Assembly (NCBI GenBank): GCA_031288635.1
Contig: JAITQZ010000004.1
Span: 1-6,883 of the forward strand
Length of the DNA: 6,883 nucleotides
From: Candidatus Peribacteria bacterium
GTDB lineage: Bacteria > Patescibacteria > JAEDAM01 > Absconditabacterales > Absconditicoccaceae
Direction: 5' to 3'
Shown here: one piece after another, positions 2,845 through 6,883 of the stretch
Layout: each line of letters begins with the position of its first letter
How positions within the stretch are numbered: position 1 is the first letter of the stretch
Position numbers and translations under genes: made by a program
The notes under the pieces: model-generated
The model's database searches: none
What the model saw: only the letters and a program-made list of their open reading frames with translations
Told to the model about the DNA's origin: nothing

Positions 2845-3162
2845 TTATGCTCGTAATCCATTACGAATAGCAGGAACAAAGTTATTGAGAACTAATTTAT
2901 TATAATTACTAGTATCCCTTTTATAAAGTTCATATTTAATTGCATCACCTCCAGCATCATCTAATATTTTTTTGTCGTTTTGTATTCCTTCACTAACGTT
3001 ATTTGCTAAATCACTAAGTTCTCGTGGATTCATCTTATCAATCTCTTTTCTCATTTGTTCTGTATCTTTGGGAGATACGTTTTGAGTTTCTTTGATAAGA
3101 CGGTCCAACTTAGTATTTGGATTTTCTGGATTGATATATATATAGTCAAGGGAATATGACAT
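2845..3162 (-). CDS. Small hydrophilic protein of unknown function (105 aa)
   Basis: No family recognised. The product is 105 residues, soluble and charged: an N-terminal part rich in Tyr, Asn and Pro (MSYSLDYIYINPENPN), a helical Lys/Glu region around 20-50, then an acidic middle (about 60-75). No signal peptide or membrane segment is seen. ATG 3162-3160 is the first start after an in-frame TAA at 3180-3178. CGA codons at residues 47 and 104 become Trp under the Absconditabacterales code, so the product would end GLWA. It is the first gene of a two-gene minus-strand unit with the 69-aa gene, divergent from uppS. A hypothetical accessory gene is the safest label. Confidence 0.6.
   Translation of the reverse strand: MSYSLDYIYINPENPNTKLDRLIKETQNVSPKDTEQMRKEIDKMNPRELSDLANNVSEGIQNDKKILDDAGGDAIKYELYKRDTSNYNKLVLNNFVPAIRNGLRA
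2851..2866. repeat. 16-bp palindrome at the end of the 105-aa gene
   Basis: TCGTAAT (2851-2857) and ATTACGA (2860-2866) are perfect inverted copies separated by CC. As RNA this would form a 6-bp stem with a 4-nt loop. It lies within the last codons of the minus-strand 105-aa gene, just before its stop, and upstream of the 69-aa gene. It might act as an intra-operon hairpin, or it may be chance. Confidence 0.4.
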
Positions 3163-3176
3163 TTTTAACGATTTAA

Positions 3177-3205
3177 TTTATATAGTCTATGCCTAAGCTT
3201 TCTAA
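3177..3205 (-). promoter_or_regulatory. Weak candidate promoter for the minus-strand small genes
   Basis: On the minus strand TTAGAA (3205-3200) is followed after 17 bp by TATAAA (3182-3177). The -10 is good but the -35 matches only three of six positions. The inferred start of transcription would lie only about 8 nt before the ATG at 3162, implying an almost leaderless message. In DNA this AT-rich, matches like this are common. Confidence 0.3.
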
Positions 3206-3222
3206 CTTTTTTTGGTAGTTTG

Positions 3223-3247
3223 TTAGCATCAAATGAAAAAATGCTAA
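3223..3247. repeat. Inverted repeat in the divergent intergenic region
   Basis: TTAGCAT (3223-3229) and ATGCTAA (3241-3247) are perfect 7-bp inverted copies around an 11-bp A-rich centre. The repeat lies between the divergent 105-aa gene and uppS, upstream of both candidate promoters. The position suits an operator for a dimeric regulator. It is not a good terminator because the stem is AT-rich and no adjacent gene ends there. Confidence 0.4.
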
Positions 3248-3289
3248 AAAATCGGATTTTCTAGCGGAATTTTACTACTATCTTTTTAT

Positions 3290-3317
3290 TTGAAAATCAT
3301 CTTCATTTCCATATAAG
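3290..3317 (+). promoter_or_regulatory. Candidate promoter for uppS
   Basis: TTGAAA (3290-3295) and TATAAG (3312-3317) are separated by 16 bp. The -35 matches four of six consensus positions and the -10 five of six. The start of transcription would fall near 3324, giving a leader of about 25 nt before the ATG at 3349. No Shine-Dalgarno sequence is visible in that leader. Confidence 0.5.
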
Positions 3318-3348
3318 TATGTCTTAACATTTTATTTCTCTCTTCCCA

Positions 3349-4032
3349 ATGCACATTTGAATTATCATCGACGGAAACCGCAGACGAGCTGCACAAAGAA
3401 ATCTCTCTCCCCGAGAAGGACACCTCACAGGAGCCGAAACCCTCAAAACCGCTGTACAACTCGTCTTTAATAGAGGCATTAAAACGCTGACCGTCTATGG
3501 CTTCTCCACAGAAAACCGAAAAAGAAGTCAGCCAGAAGTGGACGCTCTCCTCCAAATCTTCACCGACTACCTCATCGAAATGAACGAAAAACTCAAAAAT
3601 GAAGACATAAAGGTCAACATTTTGGGAAACATCAGCGATTTCCCTCCTGCTCTCCATCAAGCAATCCTCAACATCCAAGAAAACACCAAAAACAAGACTG
3701 CCCACACTTTCAACCTCTGCCTAAATTACGGTGGAAGGGCAGACCTCGTCCACGCATTCCAATCTCTCGCACAACAAGTACAACAAGGGAAACTGCAACC
3801 CACCGACATTGATGAAAAACTGATTTCTCACCAGCTCTCTACCGTCGGACAAGACGACCCTGACCTCATTATCAGAACAAGTGGAGAACAAAGACTCAGC
3901 GGATTTCTCACACGACAAAGTAGCTACTCCGAATTACTCTTTATTGATACCTTCCGACCAGATTTCGATGAAGCTATACTAGACAAATGCTTAGCCGAAT
4001 ACGAAAAAAGAACAAGAAGATTTGGTAGATAA
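3349..4032 (+). CDS. uppS: Isoprenyl transferase, undecaprenyl diphosphate synthase
   Basis: Condenses isopentenyl diphosphate with a farnesyl-type primer to make the C55 lipid carrier for envelope glycans (cytoplasmic, cis-prenyltransferase family). The 227-residue product has the whole family pattern: IIIDGNRRWA (5-14, catalytic Asp at 8), GHLTGAE (24-30), YGFSTENWKR (50-59), LNYGGRADLV, then RTSGEQRLSGFLTWQSSYSE ending near residue 194, TFWPDFDE (201-208) and a C-terminal RRFG. This holds only with TGA at 3358-3360 (residue 4) as Gly and CGA as Trp at residues 13, 57, 189 and 203. A fifth CGA at residue 22 lies at a variable position. The ATG at 3349 is the first after an in-frame TAA at 3325-3327. 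First gene of an apparent two-gene operon with the glycosyltransferase downstream. Confidence 0.95.
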
Positions 4033-4066
4033 ACGCTTGCAGTTTTATAAAGTTTCTATATACTTC

Positions 4067-4082
4067 AGAAGATTTATCTTCT
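4067..4082 (+). promoter_or_regulatory. Small hairpin just before the GT4 gene
   Basis: AGAAGA (4067-4072) and TCTTCT (4077-4082) form a perfect 6-bp stem over a TTTA tetraloop. It ends 8 nt before the chosen ATG at 4091, in the 58-bp gap after uppS. A stem there could modulate initiation or protect an mRNA end. It may also be chance. Confidence 0.4.
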
Positions 4083-4090
4083 CACAACCT

Positions 4091-5170
4091 ATGAGCTACC
4101 TCGGCATCTTTCTGACCACACTATTGCTCGCTTGGGCAGGGCTCTTGCTTTTCAAAAAGCGGAAAATTCTGGATAAACTTGGGAACGACCTCAAAAATAC
4201 CAGAAAACCCGTACCCACCTTGCAAGGAATTTTCGTGTACTTCATCGCACTTATCATCCTTGCACTTTTCCACCCAACCTTTTTCTTCTCTCCACTTGTT
4301 CAAGGATTTCTCGTTGGGGGGACACTCATCATCCTCGTCGAACTCCTCGCAGAGCTAGAATATATGGGCAGAATTCACCGAAAAATCCCTCCACGACTCA
4401 GATTTCTCGTCCATTTGCTTGCAGCAGGTATCGCATTACGAATGAGCGGAGTTTCCAACTATGAACTGTTGCTTTTCGGGGACATTTTTATCTTACCAAA
4501 TCGACTCCTCTATCTCGCTTTCGCCATTCGAGCGGTCTTTGTCATCAACGCAGTAAATCGGATTGACGGCATTTATGCTCAAGGAAACGGAATTTTAACC
4601 ATCTGATTGTTTACCATTTTTGCCCTCATCCAATGGGTCGTCTTCAAATCCTACACCGTTTTTCCTCCCGAATGGCTAGAAACGCTCCTTCTCGTAAAAG
4701 AGCTCGCACTAATGCTCGCCCTGATTTCTCTCGTATATACCGCTATCGAATACAAACCATTGGGACTCATCCGCGATGTAGGAACGATGTTTTTAGCATT
4801 TGGATTAGCCTATCTCTCTGTCATAGGAGGAACAAAAATCTGAACGGTCGTTGTAGCACTATCCCTCGTCATTTTCGATGCACTACGAGTAGGATTGTAT
4901 AGAATTTTTATCGCAAAAAAATCTCCTATGAAAGGAGACTATACTCACCTGCACCATCGCTTGCTCGGACTCGGACGAAGCAGAGGAGAAGTAAGAGCAT
5001 TCGTACGAATTTTCTCTATAGTAATGATGTTATTAATGCTAATGCAAGGGACCAATAGACTCCACAAACTCATCCTCTTCGTTCTAATGGCCCTCCTCTT
5101 TTTCGGCATCAATGCGTACCTATTCCTCTACAAAAAACTCCCCTACGGTCTCCCAGAAAAAAAAGAATAA
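4091..5170 (+). CDS. Glycosyltransferase family 4 membrane protein (WecA/TagO/MraY-like)
   Basis: A 359-residue, very hydrophobic protein with roughly ten membrane segments. Family members move a sugar-1-phosphate from a UDP-sugar to undecaprenyl phosphate. Visible motifs: KILDKLGNDLKNTRKPVPTLQG near the N-terminus (from residue 25), NAVNWIDGI (153-161), a FDALWVGLYR segment (near 262-271) and THLHHRLLGLGW (285-296). TGA at 4604-4606 (residue 172) and 4841-4843 (251) are read as Gly. CGA/CGG occurs at ten positions, including W157 in the NAVNWIDG motif and W296 in LGWS, where Trp is common in the family. Two family features are altered: the usual DD pair aligns with A87-E88, and the second Asp of DGxDG is Y162. 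ATG 4091 was preferred to the in-frame TTG at 4022, which would overlap uppS. Sugar specificity cannot be told. Confidence 0.85.
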
Positions 5171-5179
5171 CATCCTACA

Positions 5180-5224
5180 CCCCCTCTCTACACCCCCTTT
5201 CGTAAAGGGGGAAAGGGGGATTTT
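5180..5224 (+). repeat. Two-tier C/G hairpin, copy A, possible terminator of the uppS-GT4 operon
   Basis: CCCCCTTT (5193-5200) and AAAGGGGG (5204-5211) form a perfect 8-bp stem over CGT. An outer CCCCC (5180-5184) can pair with a second GGGGG (5215-5219), followed by ATTTT. It lies 10 bp after the TAA of the GT4 gene, so it may end the transcript, although the T-run is short. A related sequence at 5884-5950 suggests a dispersed palindromic repeat. The following 100 bp to 5333 are A-rich and hold nothing I recognise. Confidence 0.6.
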
Positions 5225-5333
5225 GAAAGAAATTTGAAAGAAAAACGCCCGTAATCTGGACAATAGCAAACGAAAAAAGAACAAAAAAAAGAAGAAGGAG
5301 AGATTCCTCAAGAAAAATAAGAATTTTCCAATA

Positions 5334-5579
5334 TTATTCCTTCTTACCAAGATAATCCAAAACCTCTTCTTTAGAAATCTCTGCCTACCTGAGAATAGAA
5401 AAGAGCGTTCATATTTTTATCTCTTTAGGTCAATGATTAGGAACTACTACTTGGTCATTTGAACGAGGACTATACCAAACCTCGTGAGATTTCTTATGTC
5501 ATCGCCTATCAAATTTACACCCGAAATGTTCCAAGACATTCTTAATATCTTTATATTTGAATGAGTTTCGTATAGGCAT
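5334..5579 (-). pseudogene. hicA: HicA-type mRNA interferase toxin, interrupted by an in-frame TAG
   Basis: HicA toxins are small double-stranded-RNA-binding-fold ribonucleases that cleave mRNA. Read from ATG 5579-5577, this gives 81 codons with the family pattern: YKDIKNVLEHFGCKF (9-23), the catalytic-region WGHKKSHEVWYSP (26-38, conserved His at 32) and VVVPNHGPKEIKIGTLFSIL (44-63). Three TGA codons are glycines (27, 50, 57). Those at 50 and 57 fall on the two family-conserved Gly of PNHG-KEIK-GTL. CGA codons 4 and 26 become Trp. Codon 65 (5387-5385) is TAG where the family usually has Gln (ILRQAGIS). The same frame continues with AEISKEEVLDYLGKKE to TAA 5336-5334. The product would be 64 residues without its last helices, so it is probably inactive unless TAG is suppressed. 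It follows hicB by 7 bp. Confidence 0.85.
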
Positions 5580-5586
5580 AATAAAG

Positions 5587-5850
5587 TTAGGCTAATTGTA
5601 AAGAGCTAGAAACAGAATAATTCAGAAAGAAATTAGTATACTGCAAAAGATGATTTTTTTTGGCATTCATAAGTCTATCTCTTTTCGCTTCTAAGAGATT
5701 TTTCATTACTTCAGGAGCGATTTTAATGGCTTCTTCCAAGGTCTCTGTTTCCAAAATGAACCCCGACACATCAGGACTACTTCAAAAATAGTATTTCTCT
5801 CCATCCTGCTCTAATTCTTCAATGATTATTCTAATAGTCTGTGGTGCTAT
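5587..5850 (-). CDS. hicB: HicB/DUF1902-like antitoxin, start codon unclear
   Basis: HicB antitoxins bind HicA and often repress their own operon. The frame ends in TAA 5589-5587 and reads upstream through a TGA (5784-5782, Gly) into TIRIIIEELEQDGEKYYFG, then SSPDVSGFILETETLEEAI, matching the partial RNase-H-like fold of HicB/DUF1902 proteins (SPDIPGLVLEADTLEE-type). No DNA-binding domain follows; the C-terminus is a helix plus a polar tail. No in-frame ATG, GTG or TTG lies in the expected N-terminal region: the frame opens at a TAG (5877-5875) and the first standard start is a GTG inside the domain (5769). ATA at 5850-5848 sits where ATG is expected, giving 87 residues. Either ATA is a rare start or the start was lost. 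Probably the partner of the damaged hicA just downstream. Confidence 0.65.
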
Positions 5851-5883
5851 TTGTTTATTGCTACAAAATAAAACCTAAATATT

Positions 5884-5950
5884 CACCCCTTTTCGTACTG
5901 CGTTCCATATTCACCGTGGGAAAGGGGAGATTTTCAAAAAAAATATTAAC
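5884..5950. repeat. C/G palindromic repeat, copy B
   Basis: CCCCTTT (5886-5892) and AAAGGGG (5921-5927) form a 7-bp stem around a 28-nt insert. The left edge (CACCCC, T-run, CGTA) and the right edge (GGGAAAGGGG, then ATTTT and an A-rich run) both match copy A at 5191-5230, while the centre differs. It lies immediately upstream of hicB, which may explain why hicB has no clear start or promoter. A dispersed intergenic repeat is the likeliest identity. Confidence 0.55.
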
Positions 5951-5998
5951 TATTTTTTTGTAAATTGCAAGATAAATCCCTTACTGGCAGTTCGCAAT

Positions 5999-6136
5999 AT
6001 GTCACAACAAGGTTATATTAAATTACAAGGATTAACGTATACAGTTAATGAGATGGGACAACAATATGCCTATACTTTAACTCCAGAATATGTGAATGTT
6101 GCTAAATGGGATATTTTAATCCTTCAAATAGACTAA
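5999..6136 (+). CDS. Small ORF, 45 aa, possibly frameshifted
   Basis: ATG 5999-6001 opens a 45-codon frame (MSQQGYIKLQGL at the start) ending in TAA 6134-6136. No family recognised. It is polar and rich in Gln, Tyr and Thr, without a signal peptide. A second frame from about 6106 continues with GYFNPSNRLKN and ends ERIN at TAG 6190-6192. One extra base near the GGG at 6108-6110 would fuse both into a protein of about 63 residues. So this may be a short gene, a broken gene or chance. No Shine-Dalgarno site is seen. Confidence 0.35.
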   Translation: MSQQGYIKLQGLTYTVNEMGQQYAYTLTPEYVNVAKWDILILQID

Positions 6137-6192
6137 AAAATACAACCATTAATCGTAAAAATACAGCAATTGGAGTAGAAAGAATAAACTAG

Positions 6193-6317
6193 CCTTCTCT
6201 TAAAAAAACAGTTCTCCTCCTAAAAGGACATAAACACATCATTACTCATCCGAATTCGACGAAAGCGGGTTTATCTACATAAAATCATTTCTATCCCGAT
6301 AACTATCCCCTTTGAAA
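6193..6317. other. Intergenic gap between convergent genes, no gene seen
   Basis: AT-rich spacer between the small plus-strand ORF and the minus-strand SLH gene. It contains an A7 run (6202-6208), which on the minus strand is a T7 tract downstream of the SLH gene, with a short TCCT/AGGA stem before it. That could be a weak terminator but is not convincing. A short palindrome CGAATTCG is also present. I see no RNA gene. Confidence 0.4.
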
Positions 6318-6883
6318 CTATACCTTTTGAGCCGTCCTCATTAACATCAACATCACATACCCTCTAATTTCCGTATTTCCAGGAACAGAGATATCTTTCA
6401 TAATTCAGAATTTTTGGAGCTGTTTGAGATGCCCTTCATAAAAAGTAGTTCCAGCACTATAGGTATCTCCCCGCAAAACTCTGGAAAGCACAGTTCCAAA
6501 CTCCGCTCTACTCATTTCTTTCTCTGGACTAAACGTGGACACTCCTACTCCCATAATCCCAAGCTGACAAGAAGTTTCCATCCATTGCGTCAAATCACCA
6601 TACCCAGAAATATCAGGATAGACACAAACCTTTTTCGTATCAGGCGTTTTCCCTAACTGCTGTATCGCAAACTGAGAAAGCATTTTTGCTGCCTGAGCTC
6701 TCGTAAGGGTTCCCATCAAATTTGCTTTATCCACATCAGACACCGTAGTAATCCCGACACTACGAGCATACGTATACGCTTGCAACAGCTCATCGCCATA
6801 TACCTCACGCTGAACATCAGTTGCCCGAGAAATATCTGGAAAAGTCTGTTTCGTAGAAGAATTTTCTGTAAGAAGGGTATTCA
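6318..6883 (-). CDS. S-layer homology (SLH) domain protein, 3' part
   Basis: The frame is open from the window edge to TAG 6320-6318 (187 residues visible, N-terminus missing). Three SLH-like repeats are seen: FPDISWATDVQ to AYTYARSVGIT and LTRAQAAKML (about 14-70), YPDISGYGDLTQW to LGIMG, FSPEKEMSRAEFGTVLSRVL and WG (88-138), and YEGHLKQLQKFGIMKDI to IRGYVMLMLMR (about 148-182). TGA at 6407-6405 is a glycine in the KFGIM motif, so the stop seen under the standard code is false. CGG at 6827-6825 and 6473-6471 are Trp (ISWA, VLWG), both fitting SLH patterns, while motif arginines (LTRAQ, MSRAEF) use AGA. SLH domains usually anchor proteins non-covalently to cell-wall polysaccharide. Here they are C-terminal, suggesting a surface protein with an unknown N-terminal part. 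Confidence 0.85.

What the first reader, a model, noticed from the sequence alone, without database searches (positions are those of the whole stretch)
3349..4032. CGA is read as tryptophan: all four conserved uppS Trp positions are CGA
In uppS the family-invariant Trp of GNRRW, STENW, the W-Q of the RLSGFL region, and the FWPDFDE motif are each encoded by CGA (residues 13, 57, 189, 203). Every arginine expected by the family uses AGA, AGG or CGC. Four out of four conserved Trp replaced by the same arginine codon is not credible as mutation. This is a sense-codon reassignment, known computationally for Absconditabacteria and very rare in bacteria.
Basis: partly seen in the sequence, partly recalled or inferred. 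Interest (0 to 1): 0.95.

Follow-up and report, generated by a model that had tools for sequence, protein, structure and literature searches.

The report
Arginine codon CGA read as tryptophan
In this DNA from an uncultured bacterium, all four positions of one enzyme where its family keeps tryptophan carry CGA, normally an arginine codon, so CGA very likely means tryptophan here; this change of the genetic code was already predicted for this group in 2021, and in two relatives (and, on small counts, here) the choice between CGA and the usual TGG follows the base composition of the gene's strand, which likely reflects DNA replication.

Summary
uppS (3349-4032) has five CGA codons and no TGG. CGA fills all four family Trp positions; family Arg positions use AGA, AGG or CGC. 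An HMM of 106 standard-code UppS scores CGA=Trp best of 20 amino acids (302.9 bits; Tyr 285.8; Arg 272.3). Between relatives CGA exchanges with TGG: of 374 aligned CGA codons of G001, 145 face TGG and 1 an Arg codon in G072. The UppS GNRRW column is TGG, CGA or CGG in 33 of 33 genomes of the order, but only TGG in 20 sister genomes with in-frame TGA and in 106 standard ones. The UCG tRNAs classified in 44 of 49 order genomes all carry G73 and lack A20. The code is already published as a prediction (Shulgina & Eddy 2021). Apparently new: in G001 CGA is used as often as TGG, and at conserved Trp sites CGA/CGG rises from 20% in genes on the G-rich strand to 78% on the C-rich strand, parallel to Leu TTG/CTR; G135 repeats this, G072 and G033 do not significantly. 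The window's uppS also appears horizontally acquired, then recoded. No peptide evidence; the window's genome and tRNAs were unavailable.

The parts
3349..4032 (+). uppS (undecaprenyl diphosphate synthase), read with TGA=Gly and CGA=Trp
   Evidence: PF01255 at 258.5 bits with CGA=W against 231.7 with CGA=R; five CGA, no TGG
3358..3360 (+). in-frame TGA, codon 4, read as Gly
   Evidence: Gly in P0005 and P0007 at this column
3385..3387 (+). CGA for Trp13 of GNRRW
3412..3414 (+). CGA at residue 22 (not family-invariant; TGG in 20 of the 27 class relatives tabulated)
3517..3519 (+). CGA for Trp57 of STENW
3913..3915 (+). CGA for Trp189 of LTWQ
3955..3957 (+). CGA for Trp203 of FWPDF
4022..5170 (+). 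MraY/WecA-like glycosyltransferase 4 gene with 8 CGA, 2 CGG, 3 TGG and two in-frame TGA (the start may be later, e.g. ATG 4091)
   Evidence: Glycos_transf_4 at 25 bits only with CGA/CGG=W, cut-off 27; G072 match at 41% identity
1..3000 (.). G-rich (+) strand part: genes at 212-1189, 1206-1832 and 1817-2614 use mostly TGG
   Evidence: GC skew positive to about 3 kb; TGG 6, CGA 2, CGG 1 in these three genes
3001..6883 (.). C-rich (+) strand part: uppS and the glycosyltransferase gene lie on its C-rich strand (CGA 13, CGG 2, TGG 3); the minus-strand SLH-like gene 6318-6881 lies on its G-rich strand (TGG 1, CGG 2)

Best explanation
In the organism of this window CGA, and likely CGG, is very likely translated as tryptophan, as already predicted for Absconditabacteria, and this is predicted to occur through tRNAs with UCG and CCG anticodons that would be charged by tryptophanyl-tRNA synthetase instead of arginyl-tRNA synthetase. 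Shown by sequence: CGA stands at the family Trp positions of uppS and at none of its Arg positions; it exchanges with TGG between relatives; and the UCG and CCG tRNAs that could be classified in the order carry Trp-type marks (G73, mostly A/G1:U72) and lack the Arg mark A20. Inferred: that this organism has these tRNAs, that one TrpRS charges them, and that the change followed from altered tRNA identity after CGA and CGG became rare. Second step: once synonymous, TGG, CGG and CGA drift with the composition of the strand. TGG to CGA needs T to C and G to A, both favoured on the C- and A-rich strand. This likely explains why uppS and its neighbour are CGA-rich while genes on the other strand mostly keep TGG. 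The replicative cause of the skew is inferred. uppS of this sublineage appears acquired from a standard-code bacterium and then recoded from TGG to CGA.
For: HMM reading test. UppS columns: W13 is CGA 20, TGG 12, CGG 1 in 33 order genomes; the six columns of the window's Arg residues hold no CGA or CGG in these 33; 20 sister genomes with in-frame TGA have TGG only at W13 and W203, and 17 CGA/CGG among 120 cells of the six Arg columns. Codetta-like test. Orthologue codons: G001 CGA to G072 gives TGG 145, CGA/CGG 23, Arg 1 of 374; G135 CGA to G072 gives TGG 50, CGA/CGG 4, Arg 1 of 111; window CGA to G072 gives TGG 6, CGA/CGG 1, Arg 0 of 12, and to G001 TGG 1, CGA/CGG 5, Arg 0 of 7; AGA control gives Arg 633 and TGG 2 of 1189. 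tRNAs. One TrpRS match in 44 of 49 genomes. Strand effect at conserved Trp sites: G001 0.78, 0.62, 0.44, 0.20 by skew bin, 0 of 10000 gene permutations; G135 18 or 19 of 10000; slope close to Leu TTG/CTR in G001 (-2.13 against -2.17). UppS tree.
Against: No peptide data. The window's own tRNAs and genome are not held. The UCG tRNA keeps C35 and G36, which ArgRS can use (recalled), so partial Arg charging is not excluded; 7 of 44 UCG tRNAs have G1:C72. A few CGA codons face Arg codons in orthologues (up to 6 of 192 and 3 of 86). In G072, 5 of 6 CGA/CGG-to-Arg matches against E. coli sit in one GC-rich dapD island that reads by the standard code, but one CGA in a murD-like gene remains. TGG of G001 faces R at 6 of 51 sites against E. 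coli (0 of 42 against other bacteria), so that comparison is noisy. The strand effect is not significant at conserved sites in G072 (788 of 10000) or G033 (1265 of 10000, and 9395 of 10000 against G001), where most genes have weak skew. Leu TTG/CTA alone is steeper than Trp (-3.16 in G001). CGG in the window is too rare to settle.
Confidence: 0.95

Rival explanations
1. CGA is decoded ambiguously, mostly as Trp with some Arg, because the UCG tRNA is charged by both synthetases.
For: UCG tRNAs keep C35 and G36, and 7 of 44 have G1:C72. A few CGA codons face Arg codons in orthologues: 1 of 374, 1 of 111, 3 of 148, 3 of 86, 6 of 192.
Against: No A20 in any of the 44 UCG or 25 CCG tRNAs classified. 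CGA fills Trp positions of many genes about as often as TGG in G001, which would be costly if much Arg went in.
Confidence: 0.07
2. CGA still means Arg and this uppS is a decaying or mutated gene.
For: Only that CGA is Arg in the standard code.
Against: Four of four Trp sites and no Arg site are affected; the 227-aa frame is otherwise intact; the same pattern is in the neighbouring gene and in relatives.
Confidence: 0.01
3. CGA encodes another aromatic residue such as Tyr or Phe.
For: At CGA codons relatives often show Phe or Tyr, as they do at TGG codons.
Against: HMM: Trp 302.9 bits, Tyr 285.8, Phe 285.1; the profile of CGA resembles that of TGG; TGG is the main partner codon of CGA.
Confidence: 0.01
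4. The link between CGA use and gene skew is not caused by replication-strand mutation but by transcription, expression level, gene origin or regional composition.
For: G072's cumulative skew has many switches, so replichores are not clean; strand was taken from four-fold sites of the gene itself; G033 and G072 show no significant effect at conserved Trp sites.
Against: Leu TTG/CTR, which needs the same base changes, moves in parallel in G001 and G135, and stays near flat in G033 against G072 (against G001 it reached 137 of 10000). This ties the effect to base composition, not to Trp, but does not show which process makes the skew.
Confidence: 0.3

Closest known systems
CGA and CGG to Trp in Absconditabacteria (Shulgina & Eddy 2021, eLife, PMC8629427; passages read)
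   Same: Same codons, same amino acid, TGA=Gly, GCG tRNA for Arg, UCG and CCG tRNAs reading CGA and CGG, both codons together.
   Different: They give CGA below 37 per 10,000 in all their species (Pfam-aligned codons), with CGA 30, CGG 24 and UGG 35 in the most advanced. Here, over ORFs of 100 aa or more, G001 has CGA 65 (equal to TGG), G135 43, G033 40, G072 11, and the window 94 on 15 codons; the measures differ. 'gc skew' and 'leading strand' occur 0 times in its main text.
NCBI code 25 (SR1 and Gracilibacteria, TGA=Gly)
   Same: TGA=Gly needed to read uppS and other window genes.
   Different: Code 25 leaves CGA and CGG as Arg; a 97% identical database protein (P0004) prints Arg at the five CGA sites.
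CGG to Trp in Anaerococcus and a Bacilli clade; CGG to Gln in Peptacetobacter (PMC8629427, passages)
   Same: Rare Arg codon captured in low-GC bacteria, with a tRNA of new identity.
   Different: There only CGG changes and the UCG tRNA is missing; here CGA changes too and a UCG tRNA is present in relatives.

Membership tests
Absconditabacteria code (TGA=Gly, CGA/CGG=Trp) | CGA at conserved Trp positions, not at Arg positions | tested here: met
   window uppS; other window genes
Absconditabacteria code (TGA=Gly, CGA/CGG=Trp) | CGG at conserved Trp positions | tested here: inconclusive
   five CGG in six window genes; 2 aligned to G001 (1 CGA, 1 CAA) and 2 to G072 (1 TGG, 1 ATA), 0 Arg
Absconditabacteria code (TGA=Gly, CGA/CGG=Trp) | in-frame TGA read as Gly | tested here: met
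   window genes need it; TGA aligns 49-69% with Gly in G001 and G072; the single uppS TGA alone does not discriminate by HMM (Ala 305.6, Gly 302.9)
Absconditabacteria code (TGA=Gly, CGA/CGG=Trp) | UCG and CCG tRNAs with G73 and without A20 | not testable with these tools
   window has no tRNA gene and no genome held; met in 44 of 44 UCG and 25 of 25 CCG tRNAs that could be classified in relatives, one more of each could not be
Absconditabacteria (lineage) | nearest relatives in the order | tested here: met
   UppS groups with G145, G001, G135 (99/97 support); DUF1846 gene 60%, 1817-2614 gene 56%, SLH gene 51% identical to G001.
UppS (PF01255) | family profile above cut-off | tested here: met
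   258.5 bits with CGA=W, 231.7 with CGA=R, cut-off 27
Proven sense-codon reassignment | peptide or charging evidence | not testable with these tools
   none held

The most novel reading that the evidence does not exclude
In this sublineage CGA has stopped being an exception and become an ordinary Trp codon: Trp is a three-codon amino acid whose codon choice is set by strand-asymmetric mutation, at about the slope of Leu TTG/CTR, so strand bias itself drives codon capture. The window's uppS, taken over from a standard-code bacterium, was recoded from TGG to CGA at every Trp site after its arrival.
Probability: 0.6. Interest if true: 0.75.

Novelty: new member of a known kind. Interest (0 to 1): 0.6.

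Why it matters
Sense-codon changes in bacteria are very rare, and in the papers I saw this one rests on prediction alone. The data here add an independent test on further genomes, place the switch between two groups that share TGA=Gly, and show a codon that has reached normal use. If strand composition sets the TGG/CGA ratio, genes on the C-rich strand are the best places to look for CGA-coded Trp by mass spectrometry, and to study how a reassigned codon spreads. In practice, the five database UppS proteins nearest to this one (P0004-P0008) all print Arg at the FWPDF Trp column, so such proteins are misread in public collections.

Tried and rejected
The viral-contig scan found no relative. The genome-contig scan by UppS gave one locus of this order among the 80 kept (L001). 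Genome-wide codon-pair slopes against skew do not tell Trp from Arg, because AGG/CGA is as steep as TGG/CGA (-1.96 and -1.93), and the sum test is weak, because Arg codons plus CGA/CGG are as flat as TGG plus CGA/CGG in G001; I therefore used conserved Trp sites. Six CGA/CGG-to-Arg matches in G072 looked like counter-evidence; five lie in a dapD homologue of GC 0.54 in a genome of 0.279, where a TGA sits at the likely true end of the gene, so this looks like standard-code DNA, a contaminant or a recent arrival. One ORF that matched an E. coli rRNA stretch and overlapping shadow ORFs were dropped before counting (139 of 147 ORFs with hits kept for G072, 71 of 75 for G001). The idea that UCG/CCG tRNAs descend from Arg tRNAs could not be settled: they are nearest to each other, and the next nearest is Trp-CCA for both in G072, but Glu and Met tRNAs in G001. 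A second TrpRS dedicated to these tRNAs is not supported: 44 of 49 genomes have one match, G141 two, G210 one plus a weak one, three none. In the UppS tree the group tested as one clade was named after seeing the first tree, and long branches are present, so p-AU 0.02 is weak support for horizontal transfer.

Full report
What is there. The window (6883 bases, GC 0.384) holds a DUF1846 gene (212-1189), two further plus-strand genes, uppS (3349-4032), an MraY/WecA-like gene (4022-5170), a HicA-like ORF on the minus strand (5385-5579) and an SLH-like gene on the minus strand (6318-6881; SLH 17.8 bits, below its cut-off). Several need TGA as Gly. It has no tRNA gene and its genome is not held.

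The observation. uppS has five CGA, no CGG and no TGG. CGA stands at residues 13, 22, 57, 189 and 203; four of these are the family's Trp positions. In 106 standard-code UppS (27 from class relatives, 79 from other bacteria) those columns are TGG in 106, 101, 103 and 83. An HMM built from these 106 gives 302.9 bits with CGA=Trp, 285.8 with Tyr, 285.1 with Phe and 272.3 with Arg; all 20 residues were tried.

Relatives. One genome-contig locus (L001, 59% identical) opened genome G001. The order of G001 has 49 genomes held, 33 with a UppS match. At the GNRRW column these 33 show CGA 20, TGG 12, CGG 1; at the LTWQ column TGG 24, CGA 9; at the columns of six window Arg residues none shows CGA or CGG (R12 is mostly Thr there). 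The STENW and FWPDF Trp are not kept by most of the order. I then took 20 genomes of the same class but outside the order with in-frame TGA in uppS, down the score list. They show TGG only (20 of 20) at GNRRW and at the FWPDF column, and CGA/CGG at 17 of 120 cells of the six Arg columns. So TGA=Gly is shared, and in this sample the CGA switch maps to the order.

Genome-scale tests. In 458 kb of G001, CGA codons aligned with E. coli proteins face W 15 and R 0 of 53, and with other bacteria W 20 and R 2 of 43; TGG faces W 18 and R 6 of 51, and W 21 and R 0 of 42; AGA gives 60% and 49% R. G072 (complete contig, 1,129,696 bases) has few CGA: W 8 and R 0 of 15 against other bacteria, W 3 and R 4 of 13 against E. 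coli, of which three R are in one foreign-looking dapD island. Between relatives, with TGG, CGA and CGG masked in the alignment, G001 CGA faces TGG 145, CGA/CGG 23 and Arg codons 1 of 374 in G072; G135 gives 50, 4 and 1 of 111; G033 gives 50, 9 and 3 of 148; AGA of G001 gives Arg 633 and TGG 2 of 1189. Window CGA gives TGG 6, CGA/CGG 1, Arg 0 of 12 against G072, and TGG 1, CGA/CGG 5, Arg 0 of 7 against G001.

tRNAs. G072 has one tRNA each for UCG, CCG, GCG, UCU, CCU, CCA and UCA among the anticodons of interest. A model of UCG/CCG tRNAs was searched in the 49 genomes and the best matches were read, not every match. UCG tRNAs could be classified in 44 genomes: all have G73, none A20; the 1:72 pair is A:U in 14, G:U in 23 and G:C in 7. 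CCG tRNAs in 25: all A:U, G73, no A20. One UCG (cut by a contig end) and one CCG could not be classified; genomes without one in hand were not shown to lack it. Arg-type controls, GCG in four genomes and UCU and CCU in two each, all have A20; seven have A73 and one GCG has G73. The marks used are those of Shulgina and Eddy (method passage). trpS has one match in 44 of 49 genomes, so one TrpRS would have to charge all three tRNAs; that step is inferred.

Strand composition. Window genes on the C-rich strand (uppS, skew at four-fold sites -0.82; glycosyltransferase -0.67) have TGG 3, CGA 13, CGG 2; the four on the G-rich strand (0.40 to 0.55) have TGG 7, CGA 2, CGG 3. Fisher p is 0.009 for TGG against CGA, and 0.045 with CGG. 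Over all genes with at least 3 Trp codons, the CGA share falls with skew in G001 (Spearman -0.58, 217 genes) and G072 (-0.25, 300 genes). In G001, at sites that are TGG in G072, the CGA/CGG share is 70/90, 39/63, 17/39 and 19/96 from the C-rich to the G-rich bin; 0 of 10000 gene-level permutations reach this (109 genes). In G135 it is 23/31, 22/44, 7/24, 8/20; 18 or 19 of 10000 (48 genes). At conserved sites the effect is not significant in G072 (788 of 10000) or G033 (1265 and 9395 of 10000); in G033 most genes have weak skew. Leu TTG against CTA+CTG, which needs the same base changes, gives slopes of -2.17 (G001), -2.27 (G135), -1.08 (G072) and -0.36 or -1.35 (G033); Trp gives -2.13, -1.58, -0.80 and -1.18 or +1.79. 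TTG against CTA alone is steeper (-3.16 in G001). So Trp codons follow strand composition where strand composition is strong. That this is replication strand is inferred; G072's cumulative skew has many switches.

Use of CGA. Per 10,000 codons in ORFs of 100 aa or more: G001 TGG 65.2 and CGA 65.4; G135 75.6 and 43.3; G033 79.8 and 39.6; G072 76.1 and 10.6; window 62.7 and 94.1 in 1594 codons of six genes. G001, G135 and G033 were sampled in part (458, 163 and 400 kb). The 2021 paper gives CGA below 37 in all its species, counted in Pfam alignments.

Origin of this uppS. UppS of the window, G145, G001 and G135 form one clade (99/97) apart from the other 30 of the order (100/99), among UppS of other bacteria; holding all 34 together is rejected at p-AU 0.02. 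The 106 standard-code and 20 sister sequences all have TGG at the GNRRW column. This suggests acquisition and later recoding; it is an inference from one gene tree with long branches.

Literature. PMC8629427: passages read. PMC13092985: passages read; it treats Absconditabacterales as reading both codons as Trp. PMC10746230, PMC11393006, PMC4079613: passages read. Searches that paired codon reassignment or reassigned codons with strand or skew terms (15 of 194 listed, 10 of 14 listed, none found) and Absconditabacteria or SR1 with code terms (2 of 2, 25 of 74, 15 of 1,481, 6 of 6, 9 of 9) listed no paper whose title or abstract start deals with strand-dependent use of a reassigned codon in bacteria or with peptide proof of CGA=Trp. 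Most subscription papers and all bioRxiv preprints are missing from the library.

Noticed in passing
G072 C1 about 111-113 kb (L180): GC-rich island (0.43-0.54 in a 0.279 genome) with a dapD homologue that looks read by the standard code: CGA/CGG at Arg sites and a TGA at its likely end. Contaminant or recent transfer into a recoded genome.
   Followed up: partly
G072, whole contig: TGA is the main Gly codon: 460 per 10,000 against 189 for all four GGN codons.
   Followed up: no
order of G001, UppS loci L111-L113, L141-L167, L172-L174: Two UppS types in one order: 48-63% identical to the window in three genomes, 26-35% in thirty.
   Followed up: partly
window 5385-5579 and 5587-5769 (minus strand): HicA-like toxin ORF (PF07927, 49.3 bits) with a small ORF beside it that may be its partner.
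   Followed up: no
window about 3000: GC skew changes sign beside two small minus-strand ORFs (2611-2820 and 2845-3162; the second has no Pfam match, the first was not scanned); a rearrangement point or replication landmark is possible.
   Followed up: no
P0004 (database protein, 97% identical to the window's UppS): Printed with Arg at all five CGA and Trp at the TGA, as if read by code 4.
   Followed up: yes
G141 C1:8115-9086 and C5:255139-256104: Only genome of the order with two trpS matches over the cut-off.
   Followed up: no
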